From: Bdellovibrionales bacterium Ga0074139
GTDB taxonomy: Bacteria; Bdellovibrionota; Bdellovibrionia; Bdellovibrionales; Bdellovibrionaceae
DNA length: 64,000 bases
Reading direction: 5' to 3'
Assembly (NCBI GenBank): GCA_001464795.1
Contig: LNEB01000010.1
Coordinates: forward strand, 62,001-126,000
Shown: positions 441 to 56,990 of the stretch, piece after piece
Layout: the number at the start of each line of letters is the position of its first letter
How positions within the stretch are numbered: the first letter of the stretch is position 1
Translations under genes and position numbers: made by a program
Notes under the pieces: model-generated
What the model was told of the DNA's origin: nothing
What the model saw: the letters and a program-made list of their open reading frames with translations, nothing else
Database searches by the model: none

Positions 441-1729
441 AAAATAAGAATCTTCTGATCTTACTAGCATTGGTTTTTGGATTAGGCCTCTACGCCTATT
501 TCGGAGAATACAAAAGAGAGCTCAACGAAGTTGAAGAAAAAAAACAACTGAATCAAATTGTTACTTTTAAAAAAGATCAAATTCAGAAAATTGAAATTTT
601 AACTTCTGGGCAAAGTATCAAATTAAACCGAACTCCTGATGGTTGGAATTTGCTAGAGCCTGTCCAAGATCAAGCAGACAATGAGATCGTGGAATCCCTT
701 TTGGATCAAGTGATGTTAGAGCAAGCAGTCGATCAAATTTCAATAACCCCAGCTGTGGATTTAGCCGTTTATGGTTTAAGTCCCAGTCTTGGTTCCATTG
801 CATTTGAGGATAATAGTGGAAACAAGCAATCAGTGGAAGTTTCGTTGAAGAAAAACTTTGAAGGACTTTACTTTCTAAGAAAAGATAAGCAAGACACCAT
901 TCTGACTTCCGGTGACACTTGGTTTTCATTTTTATCCAAACCTGCAGAGGGCTTTAGAAACTTAAGGTTATTTAGACCCCTTATTTCCAAAGTGAATGAA
1001 ATTAATATTTCTAACCAACAAGGTCAGATTCACTTAAAAAACAAAGATGGTCAGTGGCAGGCTGAAAAATTCAATCAATTGATTCTAGATCAAAATTCTG
1101 TCAGAGAAATTTTGACTCAAGTGAGCTCCTCGAAAGGAATTCAACCACTACAAACTAAACCGTCGGGTAAAAGACTGATGTCATTACAGCTTCTGGGTGA
1201 TGCACTTAATTACAAGTCAGAATTTTACCTTGATAAAAATTCCAAGGATTTATTGGTATCTTTAAATGTTCCTGAAATGAATATTCGTTTTGGTCCTCAG
1301 GTCATGGAAAAGTTAAGGTCGATAAAATTATCTGATCTGCGTGATAAAACCCTGCCTTTCCAATTTGATAAAAAATCAGTTACAGAGGTTCAGTTAAAAA
1401 CAAAATTAAAATCCCAAAATTTTGTGAAAGTGAATGGCAAGTGGTCGGACAAGGATCAAGTCGTCAGTGATTTTATCAATAAAATGAATGCACTTAAGGT
1501 TTATCAGTATCTTAATCAACCAGTGACTCAATTGAATTGGACCTACAATGTCAGTATGAAAGATGCTCAAGGGAAAGTTCTAATGGATTTTTATTGGTCT
1601 GAGTTTAAAGATCACGAAGCGTTTGCTAAAACTTCCAAGTCTGATGAAATATTTCAAATGGATGATGCCCAAATCATTCAACTGGAAATTCAAAAATTGA
1701 TTGATCTAAAAGAATCGAGTGTAAAATGA
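437..1729 (+). CDS. DUF4340 domain protein
   Basis: About 430 residues. The ATG at 437 overlaps the TGA of the preceding gene (ATGA), and its product starts with Lys/Asn followed by a hydrophobic segment (about residues 5-22) that reads as a signal anchor; this start is preferred over an ORF start at 407 inside the upstream gene. The rest is a soluble periplasmic region with repeated beta-rich modules typical of DUF4340, a family found beside GldG/GldF-like ABC components. Role unknown; by context it belongs to the same envelope-associated ABC complex. The next gene again starts inside its stop codon, so the four genes at 1-3530 look like one translationally coupled operon. Confidence 0.75.
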   Translation: MKNKNLLILLALVFGLGLYAYFGEYKRELNEVEEKKQLNQIVTFKKDQIQKIEILTSGQSIKLNRTPDGWNLLEPVQDQADNEIVESLLDQVMLEQAVDQISITPAVDLAVYGLSPSLGSIAFEDNSGNKQSVEVSLKKNFEGLYFLRKDKQDTILTSGDTWFSFLSKPAEGFRNLRLFRPLISKVNEINISNQQGQIHLKNKDGQWQAEKFNQLILDQNSVREILTQVSSSKGIQPLQTKPSGKRLMSLQLLGDALNYKSEFYLDKNSKDLLVSLNVPEMNIRFGPQVMEKLRSIKLSDLRDKTLPFQFDKKSVTEVQLKTKLKSQNFVKVNGKWSDKDQVVSDFINKMNALKVYQYLNQPVTQLNWTYNVSMKDAQGKVLMDFYWSEFKDHEAFAKTSKSDEIFQMDDAQIIQLEIQKLIDLKESSVK

Positions 1730-2733
1730 AAATTGTCGTCAAGTCTCCGACTCGAGTGGATTTAGCTGGCGGGACCCTAGACCTTTGGCCACTTTATCAA
1801 TTTATCGGAGGGGCTACCACTGTGAATGTGGCCATTGATATTTGGACACAGGTGGAAATTGAAGAGAATCAAGAGCTCGAGTGGATTTCAAAGGATCTTA
1901 ATTTACATCTTAAATATCAAACACGTGAAAAAGCACTTTCAGACCCCGATCCACAGACTCAACTTTTTAGATCAGTTTTAGGCTTTTTTAATAGTCAAAA
2001 GGGTTTTAAATTGACCACCCAGTCTCAGTCGCCAGTAGGCGGGGGTTTGGGGGGCAGCTCTTCTTTGACCATTTCAATGCTTAAAGCTTTTGCCCAATTT
2101 TTTGATCATCAATTTTCTAGTGTTCATGAAATTGTCCATATTGCCCACAACTTAGAGGCGCAGGTTTTGAACACGCCCACAGGAACCCAGGACTATTATC
2201 CAGCTGTGACTGGTGGGCTGAATTTTTTAAAATACAGTGAAACTGGAATCAAGCAGCAGGTGATGGACATTAAAAACTCACCGTTAAGCGATCATTTTCT
2301 TCTGGTCTATACCGGTAAATCCCATCACTCGGGGATTAACAACTTTGAAGTTTTAAAAGCAGCTGTGCAAAAAGATTCAACCACTATAAAGGCCCTTCGA
2401 GATCTCAAACAAATTTCTTTAGAAATGCAAAAATCCTTACAGGATCAAAACTGGAAACTTTTACCCAGCCTTTTTAATTCAGAATATGAAGCTCGGATTC
2501 GTTTAGCCCCCTCATTTAGTAGTCCGGAGATACAGCATCTGGAAGTCATTACGAAAAAAGCAGGGGCTGAGGCTGTTAAAATTTGCGGAGCAGGCGGTGG
2601 TGGATGTATTCTGGTTTGGACTCCACCAAAAACAAGGGATCAGGTGATTGAGGCATGTCAAAAGCAAAACTTCCAAGTCATGAACGCAAGTCCCTGTCCC
2701 ATGATCGAGAACCCACTTCACAAAAGTTTTTAG
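1726..2733 (+). CDS. GHMP-family sugar/metabolite kinase
   Basis: 335 residues, about normal for GHMP kinases. Visible motifs are the N-terminal substrate motif around residues 8-20 (SPTRVDLAGGT), the glycine/serine-rich ATP loop PVGGGLGGSSS at about 102-112, and the C-terminal KICGAGGGG motif near 285. The N-terminal RVDLAGGTLD pattern is like that of D-glycero-D-manno-heptose-7-phosphate kinase and fucokinase-type members, so a phosphorylated sugar precursor of the envelope is a reasonable guess, but the substrate cannot be read from sequence. Start ATG overlaps the upstream TGA by four bases. The 3' end overlaps the next gene by 79 bases, which is unusually long. Confidence 0.8.
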   Translation: MKIVVKSPTRVDLAGGTLDLWPLYQFIGGATTVNVAIDIWTQVEIEENQELEWISKDLNLHLKYQTREKALSDPDPQTQLFRSVLGFFNSQKGFKLTTQSQSPVGGGLGGSSSLTISMLKAFAQFFDHQFSSVHEIVHIAHNLEAQVLNTPTGTQDYYPAVTGGLNFLKYSETGIKQQVMDIKNSPLSDHFLLVYTGKSHHSGINNFEVLKAAVQKDSTTIKALRDLKQISLEMQKSLQDQNWKLLPSLFNSEYEARIRLAPSFSSPEIQHLEVITKKAGAEAVKICGAGGGGCILVWTPPKTRDQVIEACQKQNFQVMNASPCPMIENPLHKSF

Positions 2734-3530
2734 GACTTAGTTTAGCAGGTGGTAAAACTGACAAAGCTTGCCTTGCACTCATCGATCACTACCCTCAGCA
2801 AAATAAAGTTTTTCTATCTAAGCTTTTTCACTCCATACAGGCCGAAGAAAATATTTCCTCTGATCTGAAAATTGCTGATTTAATTATTGGTTATTCACCA
2901 ACTGTAGAAACATTGGCTGTGGATCAACCTTGGTCACTTCCACAATGCATGACCTGTCAACTCAAGTGCCCGGGTTTTGAAATCTGCCAAGAGTCCCATA
3001 TCCAGTGGTTTTGGAACAAGCAAAAGTCAGATCGTAAAAAGAAAAAATCAGTGAAAATTTTTACTCCCTACACTCAACGATGTGTGGAATCTATTATTAG
3101 CTCTGAACTCGAACAAAGTTTTGAGGTTTCCCACGCCATGGGGGCTAATTCAGCGCCCCTGCTAGCCAGGGCGCATTTTTTAAAGAAGCGATGCTCTGAA
3201 GTGGACTGGATCGAAGTCTTTCCACCATTAAGTGTGTGGCGTTTGGGAAGACATCTGAAAATTAAAAAAAGTGATTTAAGGTCTTACCGTAAATCAGCAG
3301 TTGGCGAGGCCTGTAGGAAGCAAATTTTAACTTCTTTGCAAGATCATGATGTGGTTTTTTTATACAAAGAAGATATCCAGATCATGGTGCATAGTGTGCA
3401 CGCCTTTGATGCCTTCATTTGCGCTTACACAGCCTACCTTAAAGAAAAGAAAATGACCGAGAAGCGTCCCGATCATTTTCCTAAGAATGAAGACTGGATT
3501 GAATTTCCAATCACTGAAATAAAAATATGA
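2655..3530 (+). CDS. DUF429 domain protein
   Basis: 291 residues, matching the DUF429 family (predicted nuclease-like RNase H fold) by the FLGLSLAGGKTDKA opening near residue 25, the AVDQPWSLP segment and the MGANSAPLLARA and WIEVFPP segments further on. A Cys cluster (CMTCQLKCPGFEIC) lies near residue 98-111 and could bind metal. The start at 2655 lies 79 bases inside the GHMP kinase gene; an AGGTG about 8 bases upstream supports it, and no later ATG occurs before the conserved core. The biochemical function of DUF429 is not established. The gene end forms a perfect hairpin with the end of the convergent VWA gene. Confidence 0.7.
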   Translation: MSKAKLPSHERKSLSHDREPTSQKFLGLSLAGGKTDKACLALIDHYPQQNKVFLSKLFHSIQAEENISSDLKIADLIIGYSPTVETLAVDQPWSLPQCMTCQLKCPGFEICQESHIQWFWNKQKSDRKKKKSVKIFTPYTQRCVESIISSELEQSFEVSHAMGANSAPLLARAHFLKKRCSEVDWIEVFPPLSVWRLGRHLKIKKSDLRSYRKSAVGEACRKQILTSLQDHDVVFLYKEDIQIMVHSVHAFDAFICAYTAYLKEKKMTEKRPDHFPKNEDWIEFPITEIKI

Positions 3531-3542
3531 TTTTTATTTCAG
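3514..3542. terminator. Bidirectional terminator-like hairpin between convergent genes
   Basis: A perfect 13-base-pair inverted repeat (3514-3526 with 3530-3542, loop ATG) spans both stop codons of the convergent DUF429 and VWA genes. The stem is AT-rich (only two C-G pairs per side, at its base) and carries a run of five A on one side and five T on the other, so either strand could form a weak intrinsic terminator. Inference from structure only. Confidence 0.45.
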
Positions 3543-5150
3543 GCAAGCATAATTAATTTTGTAATCCCCAGCAGGCAAAGCATCATCAAATTTTAAATTA
3601 ACACCTTCCACTTTATAAGTGGCTGTGAAACTGATGCCGTCCTTTGTTAATGTGATGGGAAACTCAGGCAGTGGTTCACAAGTTAAAGTCATTTGTTTAA
3701 TTAGATCTCGGATAGCTGTCGAGATCCCGTTCACCTGAGAGGCGTAATCACTTTCACAAACAGAACCAATCACACCACCAGTTAATTCTGAAATTGTTTT
3801 GTAACGAAATCCGTAAGTGGCACCCTGAGTATTCTTACAATCGGTATCATCTGGTTTGGTAATGATCGAATGAAATGAATAAGCCTTCTGATTAAGAAAA
3901 TTTGTAGAAATTAACTGTAGTAACTGCTGGGGATCATTTTTAGTTGTGTTGGCAGATTCATCTTCATCTGTGATAACTAAAGTTGCAAAGTTAGCACCTT
4001 CTCGAAAAAACTGATGGCTTGAAGCTTTTTCAACAAATCGGTAAACAGAGCGAATTCCTTGCTCACTTCCCGAACCTGTTTCGGGGCGCTGAAGAGTCAG
4101 GCCTAATGCGTTTTGAGCAACGGTTTCATCTAAGCTAGATTCCACCCATTTTGCTCCATTTTGACCCACGATAGGAATTAAATCTCCGTCTCCGTAGTAG
4201 ATCACACCTTTATTAGACTTTGTTGGATTGGGATCAGTCGTAGTTACACCAATGCGGTAGTCAAAACCTCGTAAGATGGAAAGCATATTTCGCACACGCT
4301 GAGCCATGTTTTTTTGTTCAAAGGCCATGGATCCTGAGTTGTCGATCACAATCAACACATCCACTTTTTTGTCTTCTTTAATTAAAATATTTTGTGATAA
4401 AAATTTGGCAAGGCTGACCACATTCCATTGCACAGACTGTATTGAAACTTGATCAAAATTGTCTTTAGCTTCCACTGAAAAAGTGTAATTACCTTCTGGC
4501 ATTTGAGATAACAGAACGGTGTTGATTCCAGCTTGGCAAGTTCTCTGTATAGAATTGAGACGACATTTTACTTCTTTTACTCCCGAAACATCACTGACAG
4601 AAAATTGAATCTCTGAGCTCTCGCCTTGTTGCAAGCTTGCAGCGGGGGATTTGATGAATTGGATCTCGGGACCTACATTATCATGAAGGATAGAGGCTCT
4701 GTAACATAATGATTGAAGACCATCGGGTTCTTTGAATTTCACAGAATAAATGACTCTCGAGTTTTTTGTAAAATCAGATACGAGTTTTGAAGCAACGAAA
4801 GGTTCGAAAACTCCGCCCTGGCATTCTGCATTTGAACTTATTTTGATTTCGTTGAAGAACGGATAGATGCTGCCAAATTGAAGTCTAAGTGAATTATCAT
4901 TTGTTGATGTTGCACCATCATTAATAGTGAAAGTGAACTCAGCTTCATCGGTAGGAGCTTCTTCAACGATAGGAGCTGTATCATCAGGATTCAGTGTGCC
5001 CTCAGAGCTATCACTACTCGGTGGTGGAGATACGATAGTAAAATCAGCTTCACCTGTTACCACAGTGCCAACTTCGACAGCTCCTTTATCTTCACTCGAA
5101 AAACATCCACTCATTGAAGCTGCTAATGCTATGATGAAAAACTTCTTCAT
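3534..5150 (-). CDS. VWA-domain lipoprotein
   Basis: 538 residues. A lipoprotein signal peptide ends at a lipobox SMSGC with Cys16. Then a Ser/Pro/Glu-rich linker, a region with paired cysteines resembling an Ig-like or cadherin-like module (about 160-245), and a von Willebrand factor A domain starting at DVLIVIDNSGSM, with MIDAS residues D270, S272 and S274. VWA domains bind proteins through a metal ion, so a cell-surface or periplasmic adhesion role is likely. Start is supported by AGGAG upstream. Paralogous VWA lipoproteins are common in Bdellovibrio-like genomes. Upstream bases 5151-5256 hold the promoter; an ATCAC-AA-GTGAT palindrome at about 5209-5220 may be an operator. Confidence 0.8.
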   Translation of the reverse strand: MKKFFIIALAASMSGCFSSEDKGAVEVGTVVTGEADFTIVSPPPSSDSSEGTLNPDDTAPIVEEAPTDEAEFTFTINDGATSTNDNSLRLQFGSIYPFFNEIKISSNAECQGGVFEPFVASKLVSDFTKNSRVIYSVKFKEPDGLQSLCYRASILHDNVGPEIQFIKSPAASLQQGESSEIQFSVSDVSGVKEVKCRLNSIQRTCQAGINTVLLSQMPEGNYTFSVEAKDNFDQVSIQSVQWNVVSLAKFLSQNILIKEDKKVDVLIVIDNSGSMAFEQKNMAQRVRNMLSILRGFDYRIGVTTTDPNPTKSNKGVIYYGDGDLIPIVGQNGAKWVESSLDETVAQNALGLTLQRPETGSGSEQGIRSVYRFVEKASSHQFFREGANFATLVITDEDESANTTKNDPQQLLQLISTNFLNQKAYSFHSIITKPDDTDCKNTQGATYGFRYKTISELTGGVIGSVCESDYASQVNGISTAIRDLIKQMTLTCEPLPEFPITLTKDGISFTATYKVEGVNLKFDDALPAGDYKINYACLK

Positions 5151-5256
5151 AAAAATCTCCTGATGAATCTAGGATCAGCGAGTTTTAAAAATTAATAAAG
5201 AAATTCAATCACAAGTGATCAAAATGAAATCGACTGACTAATACTTGATCAAAAAA

Positions 5257-6387
5257 TTAAACTTTAGGAAGGGGTCTGAATAGTTCTTTTAGCTCGGGTT
5301 TGTGAGAAGGTTGTGAATCAAGTGCTGAAACCCAGGTTTCAGGTGTTTCCATACATAAAAATATTTTCCATTTTTCATTATTCTTTTTAAACTGATTGTA
5401 AAGAGTGCGAAACATTTCGTGGCGAAGACTAGCATCATATCTAAGCTTGGCCCCTTCGGACGGAAACATCTCTGCACTCGTAACTAAGGAAGACAGGCCA
5501 AAGCGTTGCCTCATCATATTTTTTTGTTCAGGTTGAAACCTGAGAGTTCCCATAGAGATCACATTGACTTGTTCAGGTGTGAATCGACATATTATTTCGT
5601 TCACAAGGCCCAAGTAATTTGATTTCCAATCTGGATGCCAAATAAGAGGATCCAAGTGAAAGGCGACAGAAAATCCAGCCTTAATACACTTTTCTGCAGC
5701 TAAAAGCCTTTTCTCAAGACTTGCAGTCCGATGTTCTTCTTGATCAATCACTTCTTGGCAGTTCAGCGACCAGCTGACCACTGTATTGGGGCTAGGCCCT
5801 AGATCTAAAAATTGATCCACTTGATCTGACTTTGTTTTAAATTCTAAAGTCCAATGGGGGAGCTTTTGAAAAAAGGGAATTAGTTTTCTTGAAAATAAAG
5901 TCAGCCCATCCAGCGATAAGGAATCAATGATTTCTCCTGTTCCTACGCGAAAGGGAAGGTGAGCACTTTTTTCAGACATATCTGTTAATTCTTGTAGAGC
6001 CTGATCAAGATTTGAATAAATTTTAGCGATGGGTGTATTTAAATAACTTTGTAAATAGCAATAAGAGCAATTCATATTGCATTGAGAGCCCAAATTAAGA
6101 ACATGATAGTTGCAGCAATTCAGTACTTTAGCTTGTGATGATCCAGGACAGCGCTTAAAAAATTGGCCTTTAAATTCCGTAATAAACAAATTTTTCTTAG
6201 AGCGATCAAATTCTTCTGCAGATAGCGTCCTTTTGAGTTCTGACCAGGGTTGTTGGTCAACAAATTGGATTTTATTTTTTGGAAAAATTTGAGTGAATCT
6301 TTTTGCAACATCGGAATCAGCTGATTGATGATCAATAAAAACAGTATCAAAAAAATCGAGCAATTCTATTGAAGGTTGGAATTCCAA
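5257..6387 (-). CDS. Spore photoproduct lyase-like radical SAM protein
   Basis: 376 residues. The radical SAM cluster motif CNMNCSYC gives C103, C107 and C110, followed by YLQSYL as in spore photoproduct lyase (SPL). The N-terminal part also resembles SPL. In Bacillus SPL a conserved Cys (Cys141) in an AACTSD segment donates the hydrogen atom; the matching segment here, about residues 146-152, reads FRVGTGE and has no Cys. Therefore the canonical spore photoproduct repair reaction is unlikely, and a non-sporulating predator would not need it. The gene overlaps the upstream gene by 22 bases, so the two are probably co-translated. Radical SAM membership is sure; the reaction is unknown. Confidence 0.8.
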   Translation of the reverse strand: MEFQPSIELLDFFDTVFIDHQSADSDVAKRFTQIFPKNKIQFVDQQPWSELKRTLSAEEFDRSKKNLFITEFKGQFFKRCPGSSQAKVLNCCNYHVLNLGSQCNMNCSYCYLQSYLNTPIAKIYSNLDQALQELTDMSEKSAHLPFRVGTGEIIDSLSLDGLTLFSRKLIPFFQKLPHWTLEFKTKSDQVDQFLDLGPSPNTVVSWSLNCQEVIDQEEHRTASLEKRLLAAEKCIKAGFSVAFHLDPLIWHPDWKSNYLGLVNEIICRFTPEQVNVISMGTLRFQPEQKNMMRQRFGLSSLVTSAEMFPSEGAKLRYDASLRHEMFRTLYNQFKKNNEKWKIFLCMETPETWVSALDSQPSHKPELKELFRPLPKV

Positions 6388-7112
6388 GAGGAAGCCACTT
6401 TCTTCAGGTTTTCAGCAATTTTAAGAAGTTCGGTGGGTGAGCTAGCAAAAAATTGAACATCAAATCCAGCTGTATCACCTTTTCGGTGTAATTTTGTTTT
6501 AATGGGACCTGACCAAGGAAGTGATGAGCTCTTTAAGTATTCATCTCTTTTGGATGTTTCAGGAAACCGCACAAGGCGAAGTTGTGATAAATTCTTTGTG
6601 AGTAATTCATCAATGGGGTGATTCATAAGAATCAAATCTGTTAGCCATTCAATTTTTTGAGCTGTATCTGACTTGGACTCAGGCTTTTCTATTATTGAAT
6701 CTGCAATCTTGATACTTTGTTCTAAACTCAGAGAAAGCAGCGGAAAAAGCTCGGAAGCTCCCATTTTTTTCATTCCCACCCAATTTTGAAAATCCAGTGG
6801 AAGCTGTACTAATAATTCGCAAATCTTATAAAAATCAGAGCTTGGATGAAAGCCGTAAGTTTGAATCAAATGATCTTTGTTCAGCCAGCCCGTAGAAAGT
6901 GGGTGACTAAGAATCCGAGCGACTTCTGGAAAAGTCAGCAAAGGGTGAACTTCAAAAATCTGCAAACTGGTTTTTTCAGGAGACTCATAGGGAAGTCTGT
7001 GAATCGATTCAGTTTCATTCAAATCAAATCCTGCAATTAGAACATCACCGATGGAAATGGAGGGAAGACTTGATGGCCAGTTGAGCAATGGAAAAAAATC
7101 GAGACGTTTCAT
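6366..7112 (-). CDS. Unknown protein coupled to the SPL-like radical SAM gene
   Basis: 248 residues, no signal peptide or membrane segment, so probably cytoplasmic. I do not recognise the family with confidence. The centre (about 60-165) is helical, with a GFHPSSDFYKICELLVQLP stretch and a following SLEQSIKIAD stretch that faintly recall the helix-turn-helix and linker region of ParB-like proteins; this is weak. The C-terminal part (about 205-240) looks like a small alpha/beta module. It ends 22 bases inside the radical SAM gene, and no room exists for a separate promoter, so it is most likely a functional partner of that enzyme. It is divergent from the HAD-like gene at 7134, with 21 bases between start codons. 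Confidence 0.6.
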   Translation of the reverse strand: MKRLDFFPLLNWPSSLPSISIGDVLIAGFDLNETESIHRLPYESPEKTSLQIFEVHPLLTFPEVARILSHPLSTGWLNKDHLIQTYGFHPSSDFYKICELLVQLPLDFQNWVGMKKMGASELFPLLSLSLEQSIKIADSIIEKPESKSDTAQKIEWLTDLILMNHPIDELLTKNLSQLRLVRFPETSKRDEYLKSSSLPWSGPIKTKLHRKGDTAGFDVQFFASSPTELLKIAENLKKVASSWNSNLQ

Positions 7113-7133
7113 GTTTTTCTGGTATCATGGGAT

Positions 7134-8192
7134 ATGGCGAAATGGCAACACTGGCAAACTCGAGCGCAAATTTTTGGTGATGTGGCCTTTTTTTCCTATG
7201 TTCCAGAGGCCGTCGAAAGAAAAGCTTCTCAAGTTTTTGTCTGGGATATGGATAAAACCTATTTGGACACCTCCATCGACAGTGTCAGCGGGCTTTTACA
7301 AACTATTCTTGAAAGGGCGATGAGCAAGCGTAATGTGCCAGGAACGGATACTTTACTGCAGGCCCTATCCAAGCGGTTTGTCAGCCCCAACGTTGAAGAT
7401 CGAAGTTTCCCCATCTATTTTATTACGGCCTCACCTCCGCAAATGGAGGAAAGAATCATCGAAAAATTGCAGATCGATTCCATACGTCCTTTGGGTTGCT
7501 TTTTTAAGGACAACTTAAAAAACCTGGTCCCGGGTCGCTGGTGGAGGCTCACAAAACAAGTGGGTTTTAAAATTCAGGCTCTTTTGCAACTTAGAATGCG
7601 TCTCAGGGATGATGTTCGGCAAATCTGTTGGGGTGATGATTCTGAAGCAGATGCTATAATTTATAATCTTTATTCTGATATTTGTGCTCGTCGGTTTTCA
7701 ACACAAGCCTTGCGTTCAATATTAGAAGATCTTGGATGTACATCGGATCAAGTGGACGAGATTCTAATATTACAAGCCCAAGTTCCTGACCGGGATCCAG
7801 TGGAAAAAATCTATATTAATTTAGCCAAAGACACAGATCCTGATTACTATTTAAAGTTTGGTAGGCGAACCATGCCTACGATGAACACTTTCCAGGTGGC
7901 CATTGATTTATTTCAGTTCGGATGGTTAGAAACTCAAGACGTTTATGATATCGCCAACAACATGACCCATTCCTACGATTTTACTCCTGAAGAATTGATG
8001 AGCTCCTTTCAGGAATTGATTCGCAGAGGAATTGTAAATGAAAAAAGCTATAACAAATTAAAACCTTTTTTTGTTGAAAAGGGATTGCTGCATGCCTCTT
8101 TTGAACCCAGCACACCACTAGTGACCGAGACCACTATTTTGCATGATCCATGGATTCCCGACAGAATCGATTACATTAACGATTATCGTTAA
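7134..8192 (+). CDS. HAD-like phosphatase related to App1/DUF2183
   Basis: 352 residues. All four HAD-type motifs can be read: DMDKT (D38, D40, T42), FITAS (about 97-100), a lysine in FFKDNLK (about 125), and GDDSEAD (167-173). The layout resembles the catalytic domain of App1-type phosphatidate phosphatases and other DUF2183 proteins. The C-terminal third (about 235-350) is an added helical region of unknown role. Likely a cytoplasmic phosphatase; the substrate, possibly a phospholipid, cannot be told. The last 17 bases overlap the convergent gene and form a perfect palindrome. Confidence 0.7.
   Translation: MAKWQHWQTRAQIFGDVAFFSYVPEAVERKASQVFVWDMDKTYLDTSIDSVSGLLQTILERAMSKRNVPGTDTLLQALSKRFVSPNVEDRSFPIYFITASPPQMEERIIEKLQIDSIRPLGCFFKDNLKNLVPGRWWRLTKQVGFKIQALLQLRMRLRDDVRQICWGDDSEADAIIYNLYSDICARRFSTQALRSILEDLGCTSDQVDEILILQAQVPDRDPVEKIYINLAKDTDPDYYLKFGRRTMPTMNTFQVAIDLFQFGWLETQDVYDIANNMTHSYDFTPEELMSSFQELIRRGIVNEKSYNKLKPFFVEKGLLHASFEPSTPLVTETTILHDPWIPDRIDYINDYR
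8176..8192. repeat. 17-base palindrome shared by two convergent gene ends
   Basis: TTAACGAT-T-ATCGTTAA is a perfect 8-1-8 inverted repeat. It is exactly the overlap between the HAD-like gene and the convergent AgmX-like gene and contains both TAA stop codons, so both proteins end in Asn-Asp-x-Arg. Confidence 0.85.
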
Positions 8193-50581: not shown

Positions 50582-50797
50582 TTACGCGACCCAATCAAGC
50601 TTAATTTTTCGTTTCGATTTTACGCAATCTTTGAGATACAGATCAATCAGCGTCTGATAGGGTAGTCCACACTCATCTGATAGTTTTTTAAAGTAATCAA
50701 TTACACTAGAACTTAGATTAATGCCTACTGCTTTCTTTTTAGAGGCATACGGGTTTTTGCGAGCCTTCATTTTGGATAAATCATATTCCTTCTTCAT
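50582..50797 (-). CDS. brnA: BrnA-like antitoxin
   Basis: 71 residues with a charged N-terminus and a C-terminal ribbon-helix-helix-like stretch (INLSSSVIDYFKKLSDECGLPYQTLIDLYL). Pairs with the BrnT toxin directly upstream, overlapping it by 17 bases, in the usual toxin-first order. BrnA neutralises BrnT and represses the operon through DNA binding. The N-terminal KKEYDLSKMKARKNP stretch is like BrnA family members. Confidence 0.75.
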   Translation of the reverse strand: MKKEYDLSKMKARKNPYASKKKAVGINLSSSVIDYFKKLSDECGLPYQTLIDLYLKDCVKSKRKIKLDWVA

Positions 50798-51065
50798 ATT
50801 TTTTTCTCTCTTTCTTTGTCGCTTTTCTAGCTGAAATTATTCTAATTTTTGAATCACGATCGCGTTCACAATAAATAATAATTAAAACTCTTGATGAAGC
50901 GCTCATGCCAAGAAGAATTAATCTATCTTCCACTTCTGAATGATCAAAATCGTAGAACTCGATTGCGTTTGGATCGTCAAAGACCTGCTTGGCTTCTTCG
51001 AACCAAATTCCGTGCTTTTTTCGGTTCTTTTTGTTTTTATCTTCGTCCCACTCAAACGTAATCAC
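50781..51065 (-). CDS. brnT: BrnT-like RNase toxin
   Basis: 94 residues from a GTG at 51065. BrnT fold signature: FEWDEDKNKKNRKKHGIWFEEA at the N-terminus (the usual FEWDxxKxxxNxxKHG) and RIISARKATKKERKKYE at the C-terminus. BrnT is a RelE-like ribonuclease that stops translation. A good -35/-10 pair with a large inverted repeat lies just upstream, and the antitoxin gene follows. No strong ribosome binding site is visible. Confidence 0.8.
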   Translation of the reverse strand: MITFEWDEDKNKKNRKKHGIWFEEAKQVFDDPNAIEFYDFDHSEVEDRLILLGMSASSRVLIIIYCERDRDSKIRIISARKATKKERKKYEEGI

Positions 51066-51145: not shown

Positions 51146-52960
51146 TTAAGCCGAAATTTTGACTTTGTCAGCTTTCTCGGCTTCATAATCAGAATACTCT
51201 GTTCGAACTTCAATCATGATACCATTTTCTTTGTAGCCACGAACTTTGTACATTTTCAATGGTTCCGATCGACCCTTCACTTCAGCGGCTCCTGCCAGTT
51301 CCACTAAAAAGTCATCACCCACTTTGGCCACCACTTCTTCGCTAATTAACAAATCAGCTCCAAAAGCTTTTGTGGAGGCCTCAATCCGTGATCCTGTATT
51401 CACAGTGTTACCGATCACAGTGTATTCCATTCTTTCTGTACTACCAATAGTTCCAGAAATCACACTGCCTGCATGTAAACCAATACCGATTTGTAGTGGA
51501 GGCTCACCCTTAGCTTTTCGCTTATCATTAAGCTCGACCAGTGCCATGCGCATTTGTAAGCAACTCATGACAGCGTAATGGGCGTCTTTATCACTTGATT
51601 TGGGTGCACCCCAAACCGCCATGATGGCATCACCAATAAATTTATCAACGACTCCGTGATTGCGATTAATAATTCCCACCATCACTTCAAAGTATTCATT
51701 CAGCATTTCAACGACTTCTTCAGGTGCTCTTTTTTCAGAAAAAGCTGTAAATCCCCGAATATCAGAGAAAAAAACGACCACATCTTTTTTCTGTCCGCCT
51801 AAACCAATATCTTGATTCATTAAATCGTCGGTCACACTGGATCCATGGAATTTGGAAAATAAATTTTTAACTTTATCACGCTCTTTTAGACCTTCTGTCA
51901 TATTATCAAAGGCAAAAGCTAAATCTTTAACTTCATCTTGGAATAATGTTTTAATTCGGCTGGAAGCTTTCACATCAAAGTTACCTTTGGAAACAATTCC
52001 AATCAGTTCTGCCAAGGTTTCAATGGGCTGGGTCAACGTCATAGAAAACAAAAAGATAATAAAAATAGAACCACTTAAAACAAGGCCAGCCATATAAAAA
52101 GCTTTTCTTCTGACTTCTCTGGCTGGTTCTAAAATAATATCTTCAGAAATAACTGAATAAGCTGTGACCCCGTAACGTGTTTTTGCAAAAGCTCCGAAGG
52201 AAGCTTCTTTGTTAGCTTGAATCAGTTTTTGCCCCCTGGGAGTTTTGCTATTGGATGAAAGTTTATAGATATCCGTGTTTGAGTAGTCTGTTTGCTTAAG
52301 AGCTTTTGATTCATCTGAATCTGCTAGTACGCGGCCACGACGATCTAACAATGTGAAAGTTCGTTCACGCTTTTCAGAAAAAGGTTTTTGTAAAGCTGAT
52401 AAACGGTAATAACTAATTCCAATTTGAATGGTACGGCCAAAAGAATCTTTTACCAATGGAATTCCAATGGCTATTAATGCCGGCTTTTGAGCTTCTGACC
52501 AATTGATAATTTCAATTTGATTCTGAAACACATTTTTAAAAGGAAAAGTCATTTTGGCTTTAACTTGTTCTAAGTAAGAAACATCAACTTTTTCTTTCGC
52601 AAATTCTTCTGGTTTAGCTTGTTTGATGATTAGTTTTTGCTGGTTATCGATGAGGCTATAGATCTCTAATGCTAACAGATCATTTTCTTGGCCGAAGTTG
52701 ATTTGAAAATCCTGTGACAAGTTATTGGGATCTGATTTTAAAAGCAGATTAGCTGTAACCTGAGTTCTTCCAACAAGGCTAGTGATTAAATTTTCCACTT
52801 CAGTGGCTTTTGAAGCCGCGTAGTCTAAATTAATACTTTCTTCTCTTTGTTTAGAAGTGGATTCGAAGTAATTTGAACTATTAATCGCAATCAATGTGGT
52901 GACTGAAATCAGAAGAAAGAAGGAAAGAAGAATTAGTTTTGCAGAAATGGGTATTCTCAT
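51146..52960 (-). CDS. Membrane adenylate cyclase with periplasmic sensor
   Basis: 604 residues from the ATG at 52960; an adjacent ATG at 52963 is too close to the GGAGG. Membrane segment (about 8-28), a periplasmic dCache-like sensor (about 30-300), second membrane segment (near 300-325), HAMP (about 325-380), then a class III cyclase catalytic domain: VFFSDIRGFTAFSE with metal-binding Asp, DKFIGDAIMAVWG with second Asp, and VIGNTVNTGSR with the transition-state Asn/Arg. Thr sits where Asp specifies adenine in many enzymes, a known variant. Makes cAMP. Its GGAGG overlaps the stop of the upstream barrel gene, so it is coupled. Confidence 0.85.
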   Translation of the reverse strand: MRIPISAKLILLSFFLLISVTTLIAINSSNYFESTSKQREESINLDYAASKATEVENLITSLVGRTQVTANLLLKSDPNNLSQDFQINFGQENDLLALEIYSLIDNQQKLIIKQAKPEEFAKEKVDVSYLEQVKAKMTFPFKNVFQNQIEIINWSEAQKPALIAIGIPLVKDSFGRTIQIGISYYRLSALQKPFSEKRERTFTLLDRRGRVLADSDESKALKQTDYSNTDIYKLSSNSKTPRGQKLIQANKEASFGAFAKTRYGVTAYSVISEDIILEPAREVRRKAFYMAGLVLSGSIFIIFLFSMTLTQPIETLAELIGIVSKGNFDVKASSRIKTLFQDEVKDLAFAFDNMTEGLKERDKVKNLFSKFHGSSVTDDLMNQDIGLGGQKKDVVVFFSDIRGFTAFSEKRAPEEVVEMLNEYFEVMVGIINRNHGVVDKFIGDAIMAVWGAPKSSDKDAHYAVMSCLQMRMALVELNDKRKAKGEPPLQIGIGLHAGSVISGTIGSTERMEYTVIGNTVNTGSRIEASTKAFGADLLISEEVVAKVGDDFLVELAGAAEVKGRSEPLKMYKVRGYKENGIMIEVRTEYSDYEAEKADKVKISA

Positions 52961-52970
52961 CATTTCCTCC

Positions 52971-54617
52971 TTAAAAAGTGTACTCAGCCATGAGGTTAAT
53001 ATAAATTCCGTCGATTGTAGTTTGAACGGTATCATTAGCATTCAGTCCATAAGGACTTGATTGCCATCCAGTTGTGTCAGATGAGTCCGAGTAATTGTAA
53101 GACTCCATTTTGTAATTGGCGCCAATAAGGCCCGTTAAACGACTGGAGTAGCGATAGCTTCCTAAAATTCCTATAGAAATATTTGGATCATTTCCAGAAA
53201 TTTTTCCACCATTAGGAAATTCAATTCCAGAAACGGGTAAATACAAGTGAGCATTGGCTTGAAGACCAATTTTTGGGGTCAAAGAATACCAGTACTCAGC
53301 TCCGACATGTGGCCCCAATACAGCCCCTTTGCCATATTTTCTATCTGTGTTGTTCTTATCTAAAAAGTTAGCAGTTGCAGATGTACTTGTTGTCCATAAA
53401 GCAGGGAATTCTTTGACGAATGCGCCCATGTGGTAGCGTACGTCAGAGCGATCAGAAAGTTCTTGTTTTCTAATGGCTGAAAATTCCATTCCCACAAAGT
53501 TATAGACTGAATTTTCAAAGACATAACCACCTACATCAGCAATGGCTAAAAAACCCCAATTGGATTTTGGCTCTAACCAACCTAAACCGAAACGTCCAGT
53601 GCCAGTGATGCTTGATGTTTTAAAACCGATAGCATTTTTGTAACTTGAATCTAAGGATATGGAGCTTGCATACCAACTCAAATGAGAAAACCAGCCGTTT
53701 TCGCGCTCGATGGATTTTCGCATTGTATTGACATATTCAGCAGCAGGAGAGCGGTCGCCTGAACGAACTTCAAATGTGAGCACAGAAAGTTTAGAGGGCT
53801 CACGAATGTTGGCTTTTGATTTAACTGCTAACTTGTAAACTCCACCTGGCCAGTTAGATTCAAAGTTCATACTTAAAGAATCATAATTTTCAAATTCCTT
53901 AAATTTCTGCCATTTTTTTAACTGTGGATTGTACTTGGCTAACAGAACATCATAATTTTCAGCATTTTCTACTTTTTGCCATTTTAATTCTCTGACAAAT
54001 TCTGTGTCTGGTTTTTCAATTTCAGCTTTTTTAAGTTCAGATCCAATAATTGTAAAAGGTAAATTTTCACTGAATTCACCGAAAACATCATCTTCTTTTG
54101 ATAGAGCTTTAATTTTATAGATGTATTTTTGAGCGGCACCTAATTCAACATCAAGACTTAGATCTTTTGTTTTCTTATCAACGACAACTTCATTTTTTTC
54201 GTTCATGACGATCAGTTGATACTCGTTCGCAACAGGGACGCCAAGCCATTCGAATTTAATTTTTGCATCATTGTCTTTGGTTGAAGGAATCATTGCATTG
54301 GCAGGTGGATATTTCATTTTTACAGGTTCTAGGTTCACATCAAGTTCTGCATAACCACTCCAGTCGCCAGGAACTTTTCTAGCGTCCAAGGACCTCAAGC
54401 GAAATTCATACTTTCCTACTGGCAGTCTTCCATTCCACTCAGGTTTCACACTGATAAATGCATTGGGTTTTTTGCTAGTGCCTTTTTTACGAATTTCAAT
54501 TTCATAGGATTTTGCTTCTTCGATAGGTTCCCACTCAAAATTAACTAAGCGTCGGTAAGGCTCTGCGTGGGCTAAGTGAAAACTAATAATCAAAAGAAGA
54601 AAAAAGTAAACTTTCAT
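52971..54617 (-). CDS. FN3-repeat protein with outer-membrane barrel
   Basis: 548 residues. Signal peptide (about 1-18). The N-terminal half holds two or three fibronectin-type-III-like modules (WEPIEEAKSYEIEIR, FEWLGVPVANEYQLIV, LKWQKVENAENYDVLL), each with the W...A..Y pattern. The C-terminal 240 residues read as an outer-membrane barrel ending MAEYTF with C-terminal Phe. It is one base from overlapping the FecR-FN3 gene and 11 bases before the cyclase start. Likely an outer-membrane sensor or anchor for the neighbours. Confidence 0.7.
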   Translation of the reverse strand: MKVYFFLLLIISFHLAHAEPYRRLVNFEWEPIEEAKSYEIEIRKKGTSKKPNAFISVKPEWNGRLPVGKYEFRLRSLDARKVPGDWSGYAELDVNLEPVKMKYPPANAMIPSTKDNDAKIKFEWLGVPVANEYQLIVMNEKNEVVVDKKTKDLSLDVELGAAQKYIYKIKALSKEDDVFGEFSENLPFTIIGSELKKAEIEKPDTEFVRELKWQKVENAENYDVLLAKYNPQLKKWQKFKEFENYDSLSMNFESNWPGGVYKLAVKSKANIREPSKLSVLTFEVRSGDRSPAAEYVNTMRKSIERENGWFSHLSWYASSISLDSSYKNAIGFKTSSITGTGRFGLGWLEPKSNWGFLAIADVGGYVFENSVYNFVGMEFSAIRKQELSDRSDVRYHMGAFVKEFPALWTTSTSATANFLDKNNTDRKYGKGAVLGPHVGAEYWYSLTPKIGLQANAHLYLPVSGIEFPNGGKISGNDPNISIGILGSYRYSSRLTGLIGANYKMESYNYSDSSDTTGWQSSPYGLNANDTVQTTIDGIYINLMAEYTF

Positions 54618-56452
54618 CAGTTGACCTTCACTTTTTTCATAGCGGGGGCTCGAAGATTACTTTTATCTGGAACCACTAGTGTTCTGCTAGTTGTAGGAGA
54701 GCCTGATCTGCCAAACTGATCAATGGATAGTATTTCCAAAGTGTATTCACCCGGCATTAGATTTTGTAAAGTGGCATGCGTACCCTTATATTTTTTATTC
54801 AGAACTTCTTTATTGCCTTCTTTATTTGTTTTGATAACCAGTTGGTATTCAGTAGCCCCTTCAACAGGGGTCCAATTGAGTTGACTTCTTCCTGAGTTTT
54901 CAGCTTTTAAAATTTCGCCAGCTGGTAAAAGCTCGGGAGCTGATAGTAATGGCATTTCTTTAACTTCGATTTCAGCTGTTTCTGCTGCACCTATTCGTCT
55001 TGCTTTTTTATCGAAAGCTTCAATGGATGCCAAATATCTGCCAGGGGCTGTTAGAACAGCTTTATTTTTTGTGTCTGTGGTTTCAAGTTGGCCTTCGGAA
55101 ACCTCTGGATTCGTCAAATTTTTCCAAGTGAGTTTCCAATTGGCGACTTCTTTTTGATCTTTTCCAGCTGTCCATTTTAGCTCAAGTTCAGGTGCTGTAA
55201 TGTAGTATTGTGTTTTATTAATATTATCCCAATTGACCTGAATAGAGACAGGGGCCGTTTCCGCTTTTTTCACGAGAGAAAATTTCTGCACTTTTCCAAC
55301 CCAGGGTTTTTCTGTGTCAGGATAAATGGAACTGAGTCTCCAGTAGTAATCACCGGCATTTAAATTTTCTAGTTCAAAGCGATCAACAGTATTTAAACGT
55401 TCTGCTTTAATTTTATTTTTTAATTGAGCATCGGTTGCAATTTCAACAATGTAGCCTGATGCTTCATCACTTTTTTGCCATTGAAGCTGAAGTTGTGAAG
55501 GGAATTCTTCAATTTCAATTTGTGAGTTGGCTGTTGGACTTAATGGGGTTGGAGTGCTTCTCGCCATAACATCAAGTCGATAAATTGGACTTTCAACGGA
55601 CTGATTCGGATTTTCTTGATTGGTTGCTTTAATTTTCCAGTAGTGACGACCTATCGAATAAAGCTGGGTGGCTTCTGCTTTTCCAAGTTCGACTTGGGTC
55701 ACATTGATTAATTTCTTTCTATTTTGACCTGTTAGGATTTGTGTTTTCCAACCCTCTGGTAGACCTGTCCATTTAAAATTCACTTCAGGCTTCTGACTTG
55801 GATCAAGATACACAGCTTTGTTAGGTAGAGGGGATATAATTTTTAATTGGCTGCTATCAAACTGCATTCCCTGAGAACCTAAAGTTCCTGTTTTACCTTT
55901 TGAAAGCTCTTGAGTTTTGCCATCATTGGATTCAACTTGTGCACTACCTTCAACGATTTGTAAGCTTAGGTTTTGACCAACTGCTTTTGATAAACTGGCA
56001 GATGCTTTCGATAGATCCACTTTTCCTTGTGCTGAATTAAGAACTAGGCCGGTGCTGCCTTTTTCTTGGTTGGCCTGTTGGGAGTTAACAAATAGGCTTC
56101 CTTCCATTAAATCCAAAGAGACTTCACCCTCGGCTTTAGAAAGAACAATTAAGGAATCTGACTCAAGATCAATAAATCTTCCATCTTCAAATTGGATGCG
56201 AACTTCACCATTAAGGCTTGTGCGAATGGCTTCACCATTAAAAAGTGGATCACCGGTGTTAACGGAGTGCCAAAGTAGACGAGTAGGAGGACGCCTAAGA
56301 ACTTCGTCTGAAACTTGCCCCACTTGTGCGAGTGGTGCCTCGAGGTTTAATGAATTGTGTTTTTCTGTGGATTTATACCACAGCAGTGTTGTCGCAAAGC
56401 CAATGCCTGATAGGCCTGCAGCTAAAATAAGTCTTCGAACTTGTGAATTCAC
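54617..56452 (-). CDS. FecR-domain protein with FN3-like repeats
   Basis: 611 residues. N-terminal membrane segment (about 7-24), then a FecR domain (about 60-200: GDPLFNGEAIRTSLNGEVRI and the repeated beta strands). After it come four FN3-like repeats with the pattern W.....A.GY.VEI (for example LQLQWQKSDEASGYIVEIA). FecR domains lie in the periplasm and read outer-membrane signals. First gene of the three-gene operon with the barrel protein and the cyclase; no sigma factor gene is near, unlike classic FecIR. Confidence 0.78.
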   Translation of the reverse strand: MNSQVRRLILAAGLSGIGFATTLLWYKSTEKHNSLNLEAPLAQVGQVSDEVLRRPPTRLLWHSVNTGDPLFNGEAIRTSLNGEVRIQFEDGRFIDLESDSLIVLSKAEGEVSLDLMEGSLFVNSQQANQEKGSTGLVLNSAQGKVDLSKASASLSKAVGQNLSLQIVEGSAQVESNDGKTQELSKGKTGTLGSQGMQFDSSQLKIISPLPNKAVYLDPSQKPEVNFKWTGLPEGWKTQILTGQNRKKLINVTQVELGKAEATQLYSIGRHYWKIKATNQENPNQSVESPIYRLDVMARSTPTPLSPTANSQIEIEEFPSQLQLQWQKSDEASGYIVEIATDAQLKNKIKAERLNTVDRFELENLNAGDYYWRLSSIYPDTEKPWVGKVQKFSLVKKAETAPVSIQVNWDNINKTQYYITAPELELKWTAGKDQKEVANWKLTWKNLTNPEVSEGQLETTDTKNKAVLTAPGRYLASIEAFDKKARRIGAAETAEIEVKEMPLLSAPELLPAGEILKAENSGRSQLNWTPVEGATEYQLVIKTNKEGNKEVLNKKYKGTHATLQNLMPGEYTLEILSIDQFGRSGSPTTSRTLVVPDKSNLRAPAMKKVKVN

Positions 56453-56516: not shown

Positions 56517-56990
56517 ATGGAAAAAAAAAATTACATAACGCCTGTAGGATTTGAAAAGCTTAAAGCCGAGTACTCTGAGCTTTTGCACAAAGAGCGGCCC
56601 AAAGTCGTGGAAGTTGTCGCCTGGGCGGCCAGTAACGGAGATCGTTCTGAAAATGCAGACTATCAATACGGAAAAAAACGACTCAGAGAAATTGATCATA
56701 GACTGCATTTTTTAAATCAAAGACTGGACTCGGCAGAAGTCGTGGATCCTGCAAAAGTCCAATCTGACAAAATTGTTTTTGGAGCCACTGTCGAAATCGA
56801 AAAAGAAAATGGTGAAACTAAAGTTATAAAAATTGTCGGCGAAGATGAAATTGATATTGAAAAAGGATTTATTTCTTGGAAGTCACCAATGGCGCAAATT
56901 CTAATTGGTAAAAAAACAGGAGAATGTGTCAACCTACAAAAACCAGCTTCCAACGAAGAGCTGATCATTCTATCTATAAACTATATATAA
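56517..56990 (+). CDS. greB: Transcription elongation factor GreB
   Basis: 157 residues, normal. The coiled-coil tip SNGDRSENADYQYGKKRLREID is the GreB form, with the acidic residues that help RNA cleavage by stalled polymerase. C-terminal FKBP-like domain (KIVGEDEIDIEKGFISWKSPMAQ). The gene stands alone; the upstream leader includes AGGA. A GACTT/AAGTC small hairpin lies about 30 bases upstream. Confidence 0.92.
   Translation: MEKKNYITPVGFEKLKAEYSELLHKERPKVVEVVAWAASNGDRSENADYQYGKKRLREIDHRLHFLNQRLDSAEVVDPAKVQSDKIVFGATVEIEKENGETKVIKIVGEDEIDIEKGFISWKSPMAQILIGKKTGECVNLQKPASNEELIILSINYI

What the first reader, a model, noticed from the sequence alone, without database searches (positions are those of the whole stretch)
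51146..56452. FecR / FN3-barrel / adenylate-cyclase operon: a possible outer-membrane-to-cAMP signalling unit
Three overlapping or abutting genes encode a FecR-domain protein with FN3 repeats, an FN3-repeat outer-membrane barrel, and a membrane cyclase with a periplasmic sensor and intact class III motifs. FecR normally works with a sigma factor; here the output would be cAMP. The shared FN3 modules suggest the two envelope proteins touch, so a signal could pass from the outer membrane through the periplasm to the cyclase. FecR and cyclase genes do occur together in some other genomes, so the novelty lies mainly in the FN3-barrel partner.
Basis: partly seen in the sequence, partly recalled or inferred. 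Interest (0 to 1): 0.7.

Follow-up and report, generated by a model that had tools for sequence, protein, structure and literature searches.

The report
Outer-membrane-to-cAMP signalling operon in predators
Three neighbouring genes, kept together across the Bdellovibrio phylum, encode an outer-membrane barrel on a stalk, a periplasmic rod anchored in the inner membrane, and the only recognisable cAMP-making enzyme of this genome, so they probably carry a signal from the cell surface to the inside, as one studied system in a plant symbiont does.

Summary
On the minus strand lie FEC (FecR + four FN3 domains, one inner-membrane helix), BAR (signal peptide, three FN3 domains, a predicted ten-stranded barrel) and CYC (periplasmic sensor, Cache-type in most homologues, then HAMP and an adenylate cyclase with all six catalytic residues). 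The order FEC-BAR-CYC recurs across the family; elsewhere in the phylum CYC often lies inverted beside FEC-BAR. In 144 phylum genomes, 36 have both BAR-type and CYC-type proteins, five BAR alone, two CYC alone; in 35 of the 36 they lie within 7 kb. No sigma-factor gene is within 50 kb. CYC is the only recognisable cyclase of its genome (97% complete). FEC ends in a predicted-disordered tail that is its most conserved 18-residue stretch. Best explanation: BAR reports an outer-membrane event through FEC to the sensor of CYC, setting cAMP. Contact, direction and signal are inferred. An experimentally studied analogue exists (Sinorhizobium NsrA barrel to CHASE2 cyclases, PMC7529298), and FecR/OM-protein/cyclase clusters are described in Campylobacterota (PMC9239204). 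Hence a new variant of a known kind; I found no paper on this one.

The parts
54617..56452 (-). FEC, 611 aa: N-terminal TM helix (about 4-32), FecR domain (about 38-200), four FN3 domains (204-298, 303-395, 404-495, 500-593), conserved C-terminal tail (594-611). No lipobox in the window copy and no anti-sigma-sized cytoplasmic domain.
54617..54673 (-). Conserved FEC C-terminal tail VPDKSNLRAPAMKKVKVN (residues 594-611) plus stop; V594, A602, P603 and K606 invariant in 27 homologues; residues 603-611 pLDDT < 50
52971..54617 (-). BAR, 548 aa: signal peptide, three FN3-like domains (22-94, 101-192, 203-285), conserved linker GDRSPAAEY...RKSI (287-303), ten-stranded beta-barrel (308-547) ending in Phe
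51146..52963 (-). CYC, about 605 aa (start ATG 52960 or 52963): TM1 (10-28), periplasmic sensor (dCache_1-like), TM2 (288-306), HAMP (306-360), class III adenylate cyclase domain (392-574); six catalytic/substrate residues D, D, K, T, N, R invariant in 30 sequences

Best explanation
A three-component trans-envelope receptor for cAMP. BAR sits in the outer membrane with three FN3 domains in the periplasm. FEC is anchored in the inner membrane and extends FecR plus four FN3 domains outward, with a short conserved C-terminal tail as a likely docking peptide. CYC spans the inner membrane with a Cache-like sensor. A ligand or mechanical event at the barrel changes the BAR-FEC contact; FEC then acts on the CYC sensor, and HAMP relays this to the class IIIb-type adenylate cyclase, changing cAMP read by CRP-like proteins. 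Shown (by sequence and prediction): gene linkage, domains, intact catalytic residues, sole recognisable cyclase. Inferred: BAR-FEC and FEC-CYC contact, sign of regulation, nature of the signal.
For: Order FEC-BAR-CYC in about 30 family genomes and retained, often with CYC inverted, in other orders where the flanking genes differ. Phylum survey: BAR/CYC 36 both, 5 BAR only, 2 CYC only, 101 neither of 144 (Fisher 4e-26, not tree-corrected); within 7 kb in 35 of 36. Topology and folds. All six cyclase residues invariant; closest solved cyclase domains are adenylate cyclases. Sole recognisable cyclase in its genome; three cNMP-binding proteins present. FEC tail is the most conserved window of FEC, recurs in most distant triads, and is absent from the FecR-FN3 paralogue that has no barrel partner. 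FEC FN3-4+tail versus CYC sensor partial distance correlation 0.67. Precedent: NsrA outer-membrane barrel needed for CyaK and CyaD1/D2 signalling in S. meliloti (PMC7529298).
Against: No direct evidence of contact or regulation. Within the family the flanks (greA upstream, LolE-like permease downstream) are also often conserved, so part of the linkage is plain synteny. Distance correlations rest on 12-24 taxa and are not fully corrected for the species tree. The Cache-like sensor could bind a ligand without FEC or BAR. Some genomes hold BAR paralogues without FEC or CYC next door. The co-occurrence thresholds and the tail were chosen or noticed after looking.
Confidence: 0.6

Rival explanations
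1. FEC alone is the periplasmic regulator of CYC, for example reporting peptidoglycan or envelope state; BAR is a co-expressed anchor or porin that is not a receptor.
For: A FecR-FN3 paralogue in the same genome is next to a HAMP-SpoIIE phosphatase and a kinase-like protein with no barrel gene. FEC divergence tracks CYC more than BAR (partial 0.82 versus 0.53). The two CYC-only genomes keep a FEC-like gene beside CYC (L099, L102). FecR-LysM proteins sit beside CHASE2 kinases in Burkholderia (PMC5192318).
Against: BAR is present in 36 of the 38 CYC-bearing genomes in the survey and carries its own FN3 domains and a strongly conserved linker; in L099 a BAR gene may lie beyond the contig end.
Confidence: 0.22
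2. The three are independent envelope proteins held together by operon inheritance, with CYC responding to a ligand through its Cache-like domain only.
For: Family-wide synteny of flanking genes; Cache domains usually bind small ligands directly (established knowledge); no contact data.
Against: The trio persists when flanks change and when CYC is inverted, and is mostly lost or kept together.
Confidence: 0.13
3. Classical FecR anti-sigma signalling with an unlinked sigma factor, the cyclase being incidental.
For: A FecR domain is present; six sigma-70 region 2 genes exist in the genome.
Against: FEC has only a few cytoplasmic residues before its TM helix, no anti-sigma domain, no sigma gene within 50 kb, and BAR does not look like a TonB-dependent receptor.
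Confidence: 0.03

Closest known systems
NsrA - CyaK/CyaD1/CyaD2 - Clr of Sinorhizobium meliloti (PMC7529298, PMC13001267)
   Same: An outer-membrane beta-barrel protein is genetically required for signalling through inner-membrane adenylate cyclases; output is cAMP read by a CRP-type regulator.
   Different: There the barrel is the C-terminal half of a roughly 1200-aa protein and the cyclases carry CHASE2 sensors; here barrel and FecR are separate FN3-bearing proteins and the sensor is Cache-like with HAMP. Whether NsrA itself carries a FecR domain was not verified (the primary paper is not held).
CHASE2 adenylate cyclase / phosphodiesterase / FecR-domain outer-membrane protein / TPR clusters of Campylobacterota (PMC9239204)
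   Same: FecR, outer-membrane protein and cyclase encoded together and proposed to share a pathway.
   Different: CHASE2 instead of Cache-HAMP; extra phosphodiesterase and TPR genes; no separate FN3 barrel described; reported as horizontally transferred.
FecA-FecR-FecI cell-surface signalling
   Same: Outer-membrane protein plus inner-membrane-anchored periplasmic FecR.
   Different: No TonB-dependent receptor, no anti-sigma region, no linked sigma factor; a cyclase gene stands in the place of the sigma factor.
Bd1116 of Bdellovibrio bacteriovorus HD100 (named in PMC6717892)
   Same: Probably the CYC orthologue: the genome of 3,782,950 bp (HD100 size, from memory) has class III cyclases at 1.05, 2.56 and 2.98 Mb, matching bd1116, bd2640 and bd3072 in order; the one at 1.05 Mb is the FEC-BAR-CYC member.
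   Different: Only listed as an annotated adenylate cyclase; the two neighbouring genes are not discussed there.
LIC11435 family (NCBIfam NF047756, Leptospira)
   Same: Its first FN3-like segment matches BAR (15 of 29 members) and FEC.
   Different: Match covers only about 50-60 of 360 positions and is far below the cut-off (18-34 against 380 bits); Leptospira gene neighbours not examined.

Membership tests
Class III adenylate cyclase (class IIIb type) | Guanylate_cyc catalytic domain | tested here: met
   PF00211 1e-30, over cut-off; closest solved domains are adenylate cyclases such as 2w01 and 3r5g
Class III adenylate cyclase (class IIIb type) | Two metal Asp, Lys and Thr for adenine, Asn and Arg of the transition state | tested here: met
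   All six invariant in 30 sequences; residue roles from established knowledge
Class III adenylate cyclase (class IIIb type) | Makes cAMP in vitro | not testable with these tools
   Needs an assay
Cache-HAMP transducer | dCache_1 periplasmic domain | tested here: inconclusive
   24 of 30 homologues match, best 2e-12; window copy only 0.011, below cut-off
Cache-HAMP transducer | Two TM helices flanking the sensor, then HAMP | tested here: met
   TM at 10-28 and 288-306; HAMP in 30 of 30
FecR anti-sigma / cell-surface signalling | FecR periplasmic domain | tested here: met
   PF04773 28 bits against cut-off 24; 20 of 27 homologues
FecR anti-sigma / cell-surface signalling | Cytoplasmic anti-sigma domain and linked ECF sigma factor | tested here: not met
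   TM helix starts at about residue 4-8; nearest sigma gene about 57 kb away
FecR anti-sigma / cell-surface signalling | TonB-dependent receptor partner | tested here: not met
   BAR is a predicted ten-stranded barrel with no Pfam TonB-receptor match
Outer-membrane beta-barrel protein | Signal peptide, antiparallel barrel, C-terminal aromatic or hydrophobic residue | tested here: met
   Hydrophobic N-terminus ending AHA-EP, ten long strands, ends EYTF; shape match to OpcA 1k24, TM 0.65 by target length. Prediction only
NsrA-type OM-barrel-to-cyclase signalling | Barrel genetically required for cyclase signalling | not testable with these tools
   Needs mutants

The most novel reading that the evidence does not exclude
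A dedicated FN3-rod relay spans the whole periplasm and is the sole gate of cAMP synthesis in these bacteria, using a surface barrel to sense contact with prey or surfaces, with the FEC tail as the switch peptide. The same FecR-FN3 rod is reused with other outputs (HAMP-SpoIIE phosphatase, kinase), making it a general modular way of wiring the cell envelope to cytoplasmic signalling.
Probability: 0.15. Interest if true: 0.85.

Novelty: new variant of a known kind. Interest (0 to 1): 0.55.

Why it matters
How Bdellovibrio-type bacteria sense the outside, including prey, is poorly known. cAMP is known to activate a c-di-GMP phosphodiesterase there (Bd1971, PMC6717892), while which cyclase supplies it, and what controls that cyclase, was left open in that paper. 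This operon names a concrete, deletable three-gene candidate with relatives in a genetically tractable predator, and suggests that outer-membrane-to-cyclase wiring extends beyond rhizobia and Campylobacterota with different parts.

Tried and rejected
A single-protein scan of genome contigs with FEC found nothing, and the 29-sequence BAR alignment was too divergent to scan; a seven-sequence alignment worked. The promoter/terminator scan gave no more sites than shuffles, so transcription limits are not resolved. BAR was not found in PLSDB plasmids, so no sign of plasmid mobility. PDB profile search with BAR gave nothing and with FEC only a weak FN3 match. Rejected: classical FecR anti-sigma role; adhesin or omptin function for the barrel (shape match only, no sequence support); literature hit PMC12034629 (the cyclase there is a two-hybrid assay). 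Leptospira gene neighbourhoods of LIC11435 could not be inspected with the scans left.

Full report
WHAT IS THERE. The finding lies on the minus strand of G000:C10 (window = G000:C10:62001-126000), a 2.9-Mb genome, 97% complete, whose same-genus relative G002 corresponds to a Pseudobdellovibrionaceae MAG (same 63,027-bp contig length). Three genes follow each other: FEC 56452-54617 (GTG start), BAR 54617-52971, CYC about 52960-51146. FEC stop and BAR start share a base (TGATG). The listed CYC ORF start at 53041 is not the likely one: GGAGG follows the BAR stop, and homologues start at MRIPIS, so CYC abuts BAR rather than overlapping it.

DOMAINS. FEC: PF04773 FecR 3e-6 and fn3 5.5e-6, both over cut-off, seen in 20 and 10 of 27 homologues. 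AlphaFold2 (11 sequences, pLDDT 82.2, pTM 0.47) shows an N-terminal helix, a FecR beta domain and four beta-sandwich domains (domain limits are my reading of the strand list); Foldseek returns tandem FN3 proteins. CYC: Guanylate_cyc 1e-30 and HAMP 4e-6; dCache_1 in 24 of 30 homologues but sub-threshold in the window copy; two TM helices at 10-28 and 288-306; both metal Asp, substrate Lys and Thr, and transition-state Asn and Arg invariant in all 30. The closest solved cyclase domains are adenylate cyclases. BAR has no Pfam match in the window copy, but homologues match fn3 and Ig-like families. AlphaFold2 (13 sequences, pLDDT 83.6, pTM 0.50) shows three beta-sandwich domains, a short helix and ten long antiparallel strands. 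Foldseek places the first part with fibronectin repeats and the barrel with OpcA (TM 0.65 by target length) and other barrels, at about 10% identity, i.e. shape only. The low pTM means that relative domain positions are not meaningful.

CONSERVATION. In about 30 family genomes the order FEC-BAR-CYC is kept on one strand. Flanking genes are also often kept in the family (a greA cluster in 28 loci, a LolE-like permease cluster in 20; some loci are duplicates), so part of this is ordinary synteny; but the trio also persists in loci where those flanks are gone, and in other orders and families of the phylum CYC is often inverted next to FEC-BAR. In a 144-genome phylum sample, BAR (profile, E <= 1e-15) and CYC (E <= 1e-60) co-occur in 36 genomes, BAR alone in 5, CYC alone in 2; in 35 of 36 the two lie within 7 kb on one contig, the exception being a fragmented draft. 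Fisher p = 4e-26 ignores the tree and is descriptive only. In the distant members the BAR match covers mainly the FN3 part, so a barrel there is less certain. The two CYC-only genomes still have a FEC-like gene beside CYC, one at a contig end. Two genomes of one genus lack the BAR and CYC types (G004 and G023); G004 is 2,657,893 bp, the size of B. exovorus JSS as I recall it, and has three other class III cyclases.

cAMP IN THIS GENOME. CYC is the only PF00211 match in G000; class I (PF01295) and CYTH (PF01928) searches are negative. Three cNMP-binding proteins exist, two of which look like CRP/FNR-type proteins by inspection. The same-genus genome G002 also has only this one class III cyclase; of the other family genomes checked there, one has one, one has none, and the rest have two or three.

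NOT A SIGMA SYSTEM. FEC has only a few residues before its TM helix and no cysteine in the first 45 residues of the window copy; the nearest sigma-70 region 2 gene is about 57 kb away. So the anti-sigma membership test fails.

THE TAIL. The last 18 residues of FEC are the most conserved 18-residue window of the whole protein (mean 0.67 against 0.46, rank 1 of 594), although the end is predicted disordered (603-611 pLDDT < 50). An AP(K) core recurs near the C terminus of most distant FECs. The FecR-FN3 paralogue in the same genome, which stands next to a HAMP-SpoIIE phosphatase and an Hpt/HATPase kinase and has no barrel gene, lacks it. This fits a docking peptide, perhaps for BAR; it was noticed after looking and is untested.

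CO-DIVERGENCE. With greA and the permease as controls in 12 taxa, partial distance correlations are FEC-CYC 0.82, BAR-CYC 0.77, BAR-FEC 0.53. With the cyclase catalytic domain as control in 24 taxa, FEC FN3-4+tail versus CYC sensor is 0.67 and versus BAR FN3 0.43. Residual species-tree signal remains, so these are weak support.

MECHANISM. Shown by sequence and prediction: linkage, compartments, intact catalytic residues. Inferred: BAR senses at the surface, FEC relays across the periplasm, the CYC sensor and HAMP pass it to the cyclase. The strongest reason to take this route seriously is outside this genome: in S. meliloti the outer-membrane barrel NsrA is required for signalling through inner-membrane cyclases CyaK and CyaD1/D2 in response to external signals (PMC7529298; PMC13001267). 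Campylobacterota carry CHASE2-cyclase clusters with a FecR-domain outer-membrane protein (PMC9239204). The present system differs in parts: separate FEC and BAR proteins, FN3 stalks on both, Cache-like/HAMP sensor. Hence new variant of a known kind.

KNOWN STATUS. EMBO J 2019 (PMC6717892) lists bd0081, bd1116, bd2640 and bd3072 as annotated adenylate cyclases of HD100 and calls them subjects of ongoing study. The position of the family member in the HD100-sized genome points to Bd1116. No paper found in the held library discusses its neighbours; most subscription papers are not held, so published work may exist.

Noticed in passing
L112 (G000:C7:66000-76000) 1726-7342: FecR-FN3 paralogue (577 aa) divergent from a HAMP-SpoIIE phosphatase (636 aa) whose membrane-proximal part matches the CYC profile, and overlapping an Hpt/HATPase kinase gene; suggests FecR-FN3 rods may be wired to other outputs.
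   Followed up: partly
window 50582-51065 (-): BrnT toxin (PF04365 4.5e-29) with a BrnA-like antitoxin (just under cut-off) directly downstream of the operon.
   Followed up: partly
L061, L062, L063: Solo BAR paralogues in one genus without FEC or CYC next door; in L061 the neighbours are a PDC/Cache-type histidine kinase and a 1293-aa Calx-beta protein.
   Followed up: partly
G004 (2,657,893 bp) and G023: Genomes of one genus in the same family lacking both BAR and CYC types while same-genus G028 and G031 keep the operon.
   Followed up: no
window 56517-56990 (+): GreA-type transcription elongation factor divergent from FEC; this neighbour cluster is kept in 28 loci.
   Followed up: partly
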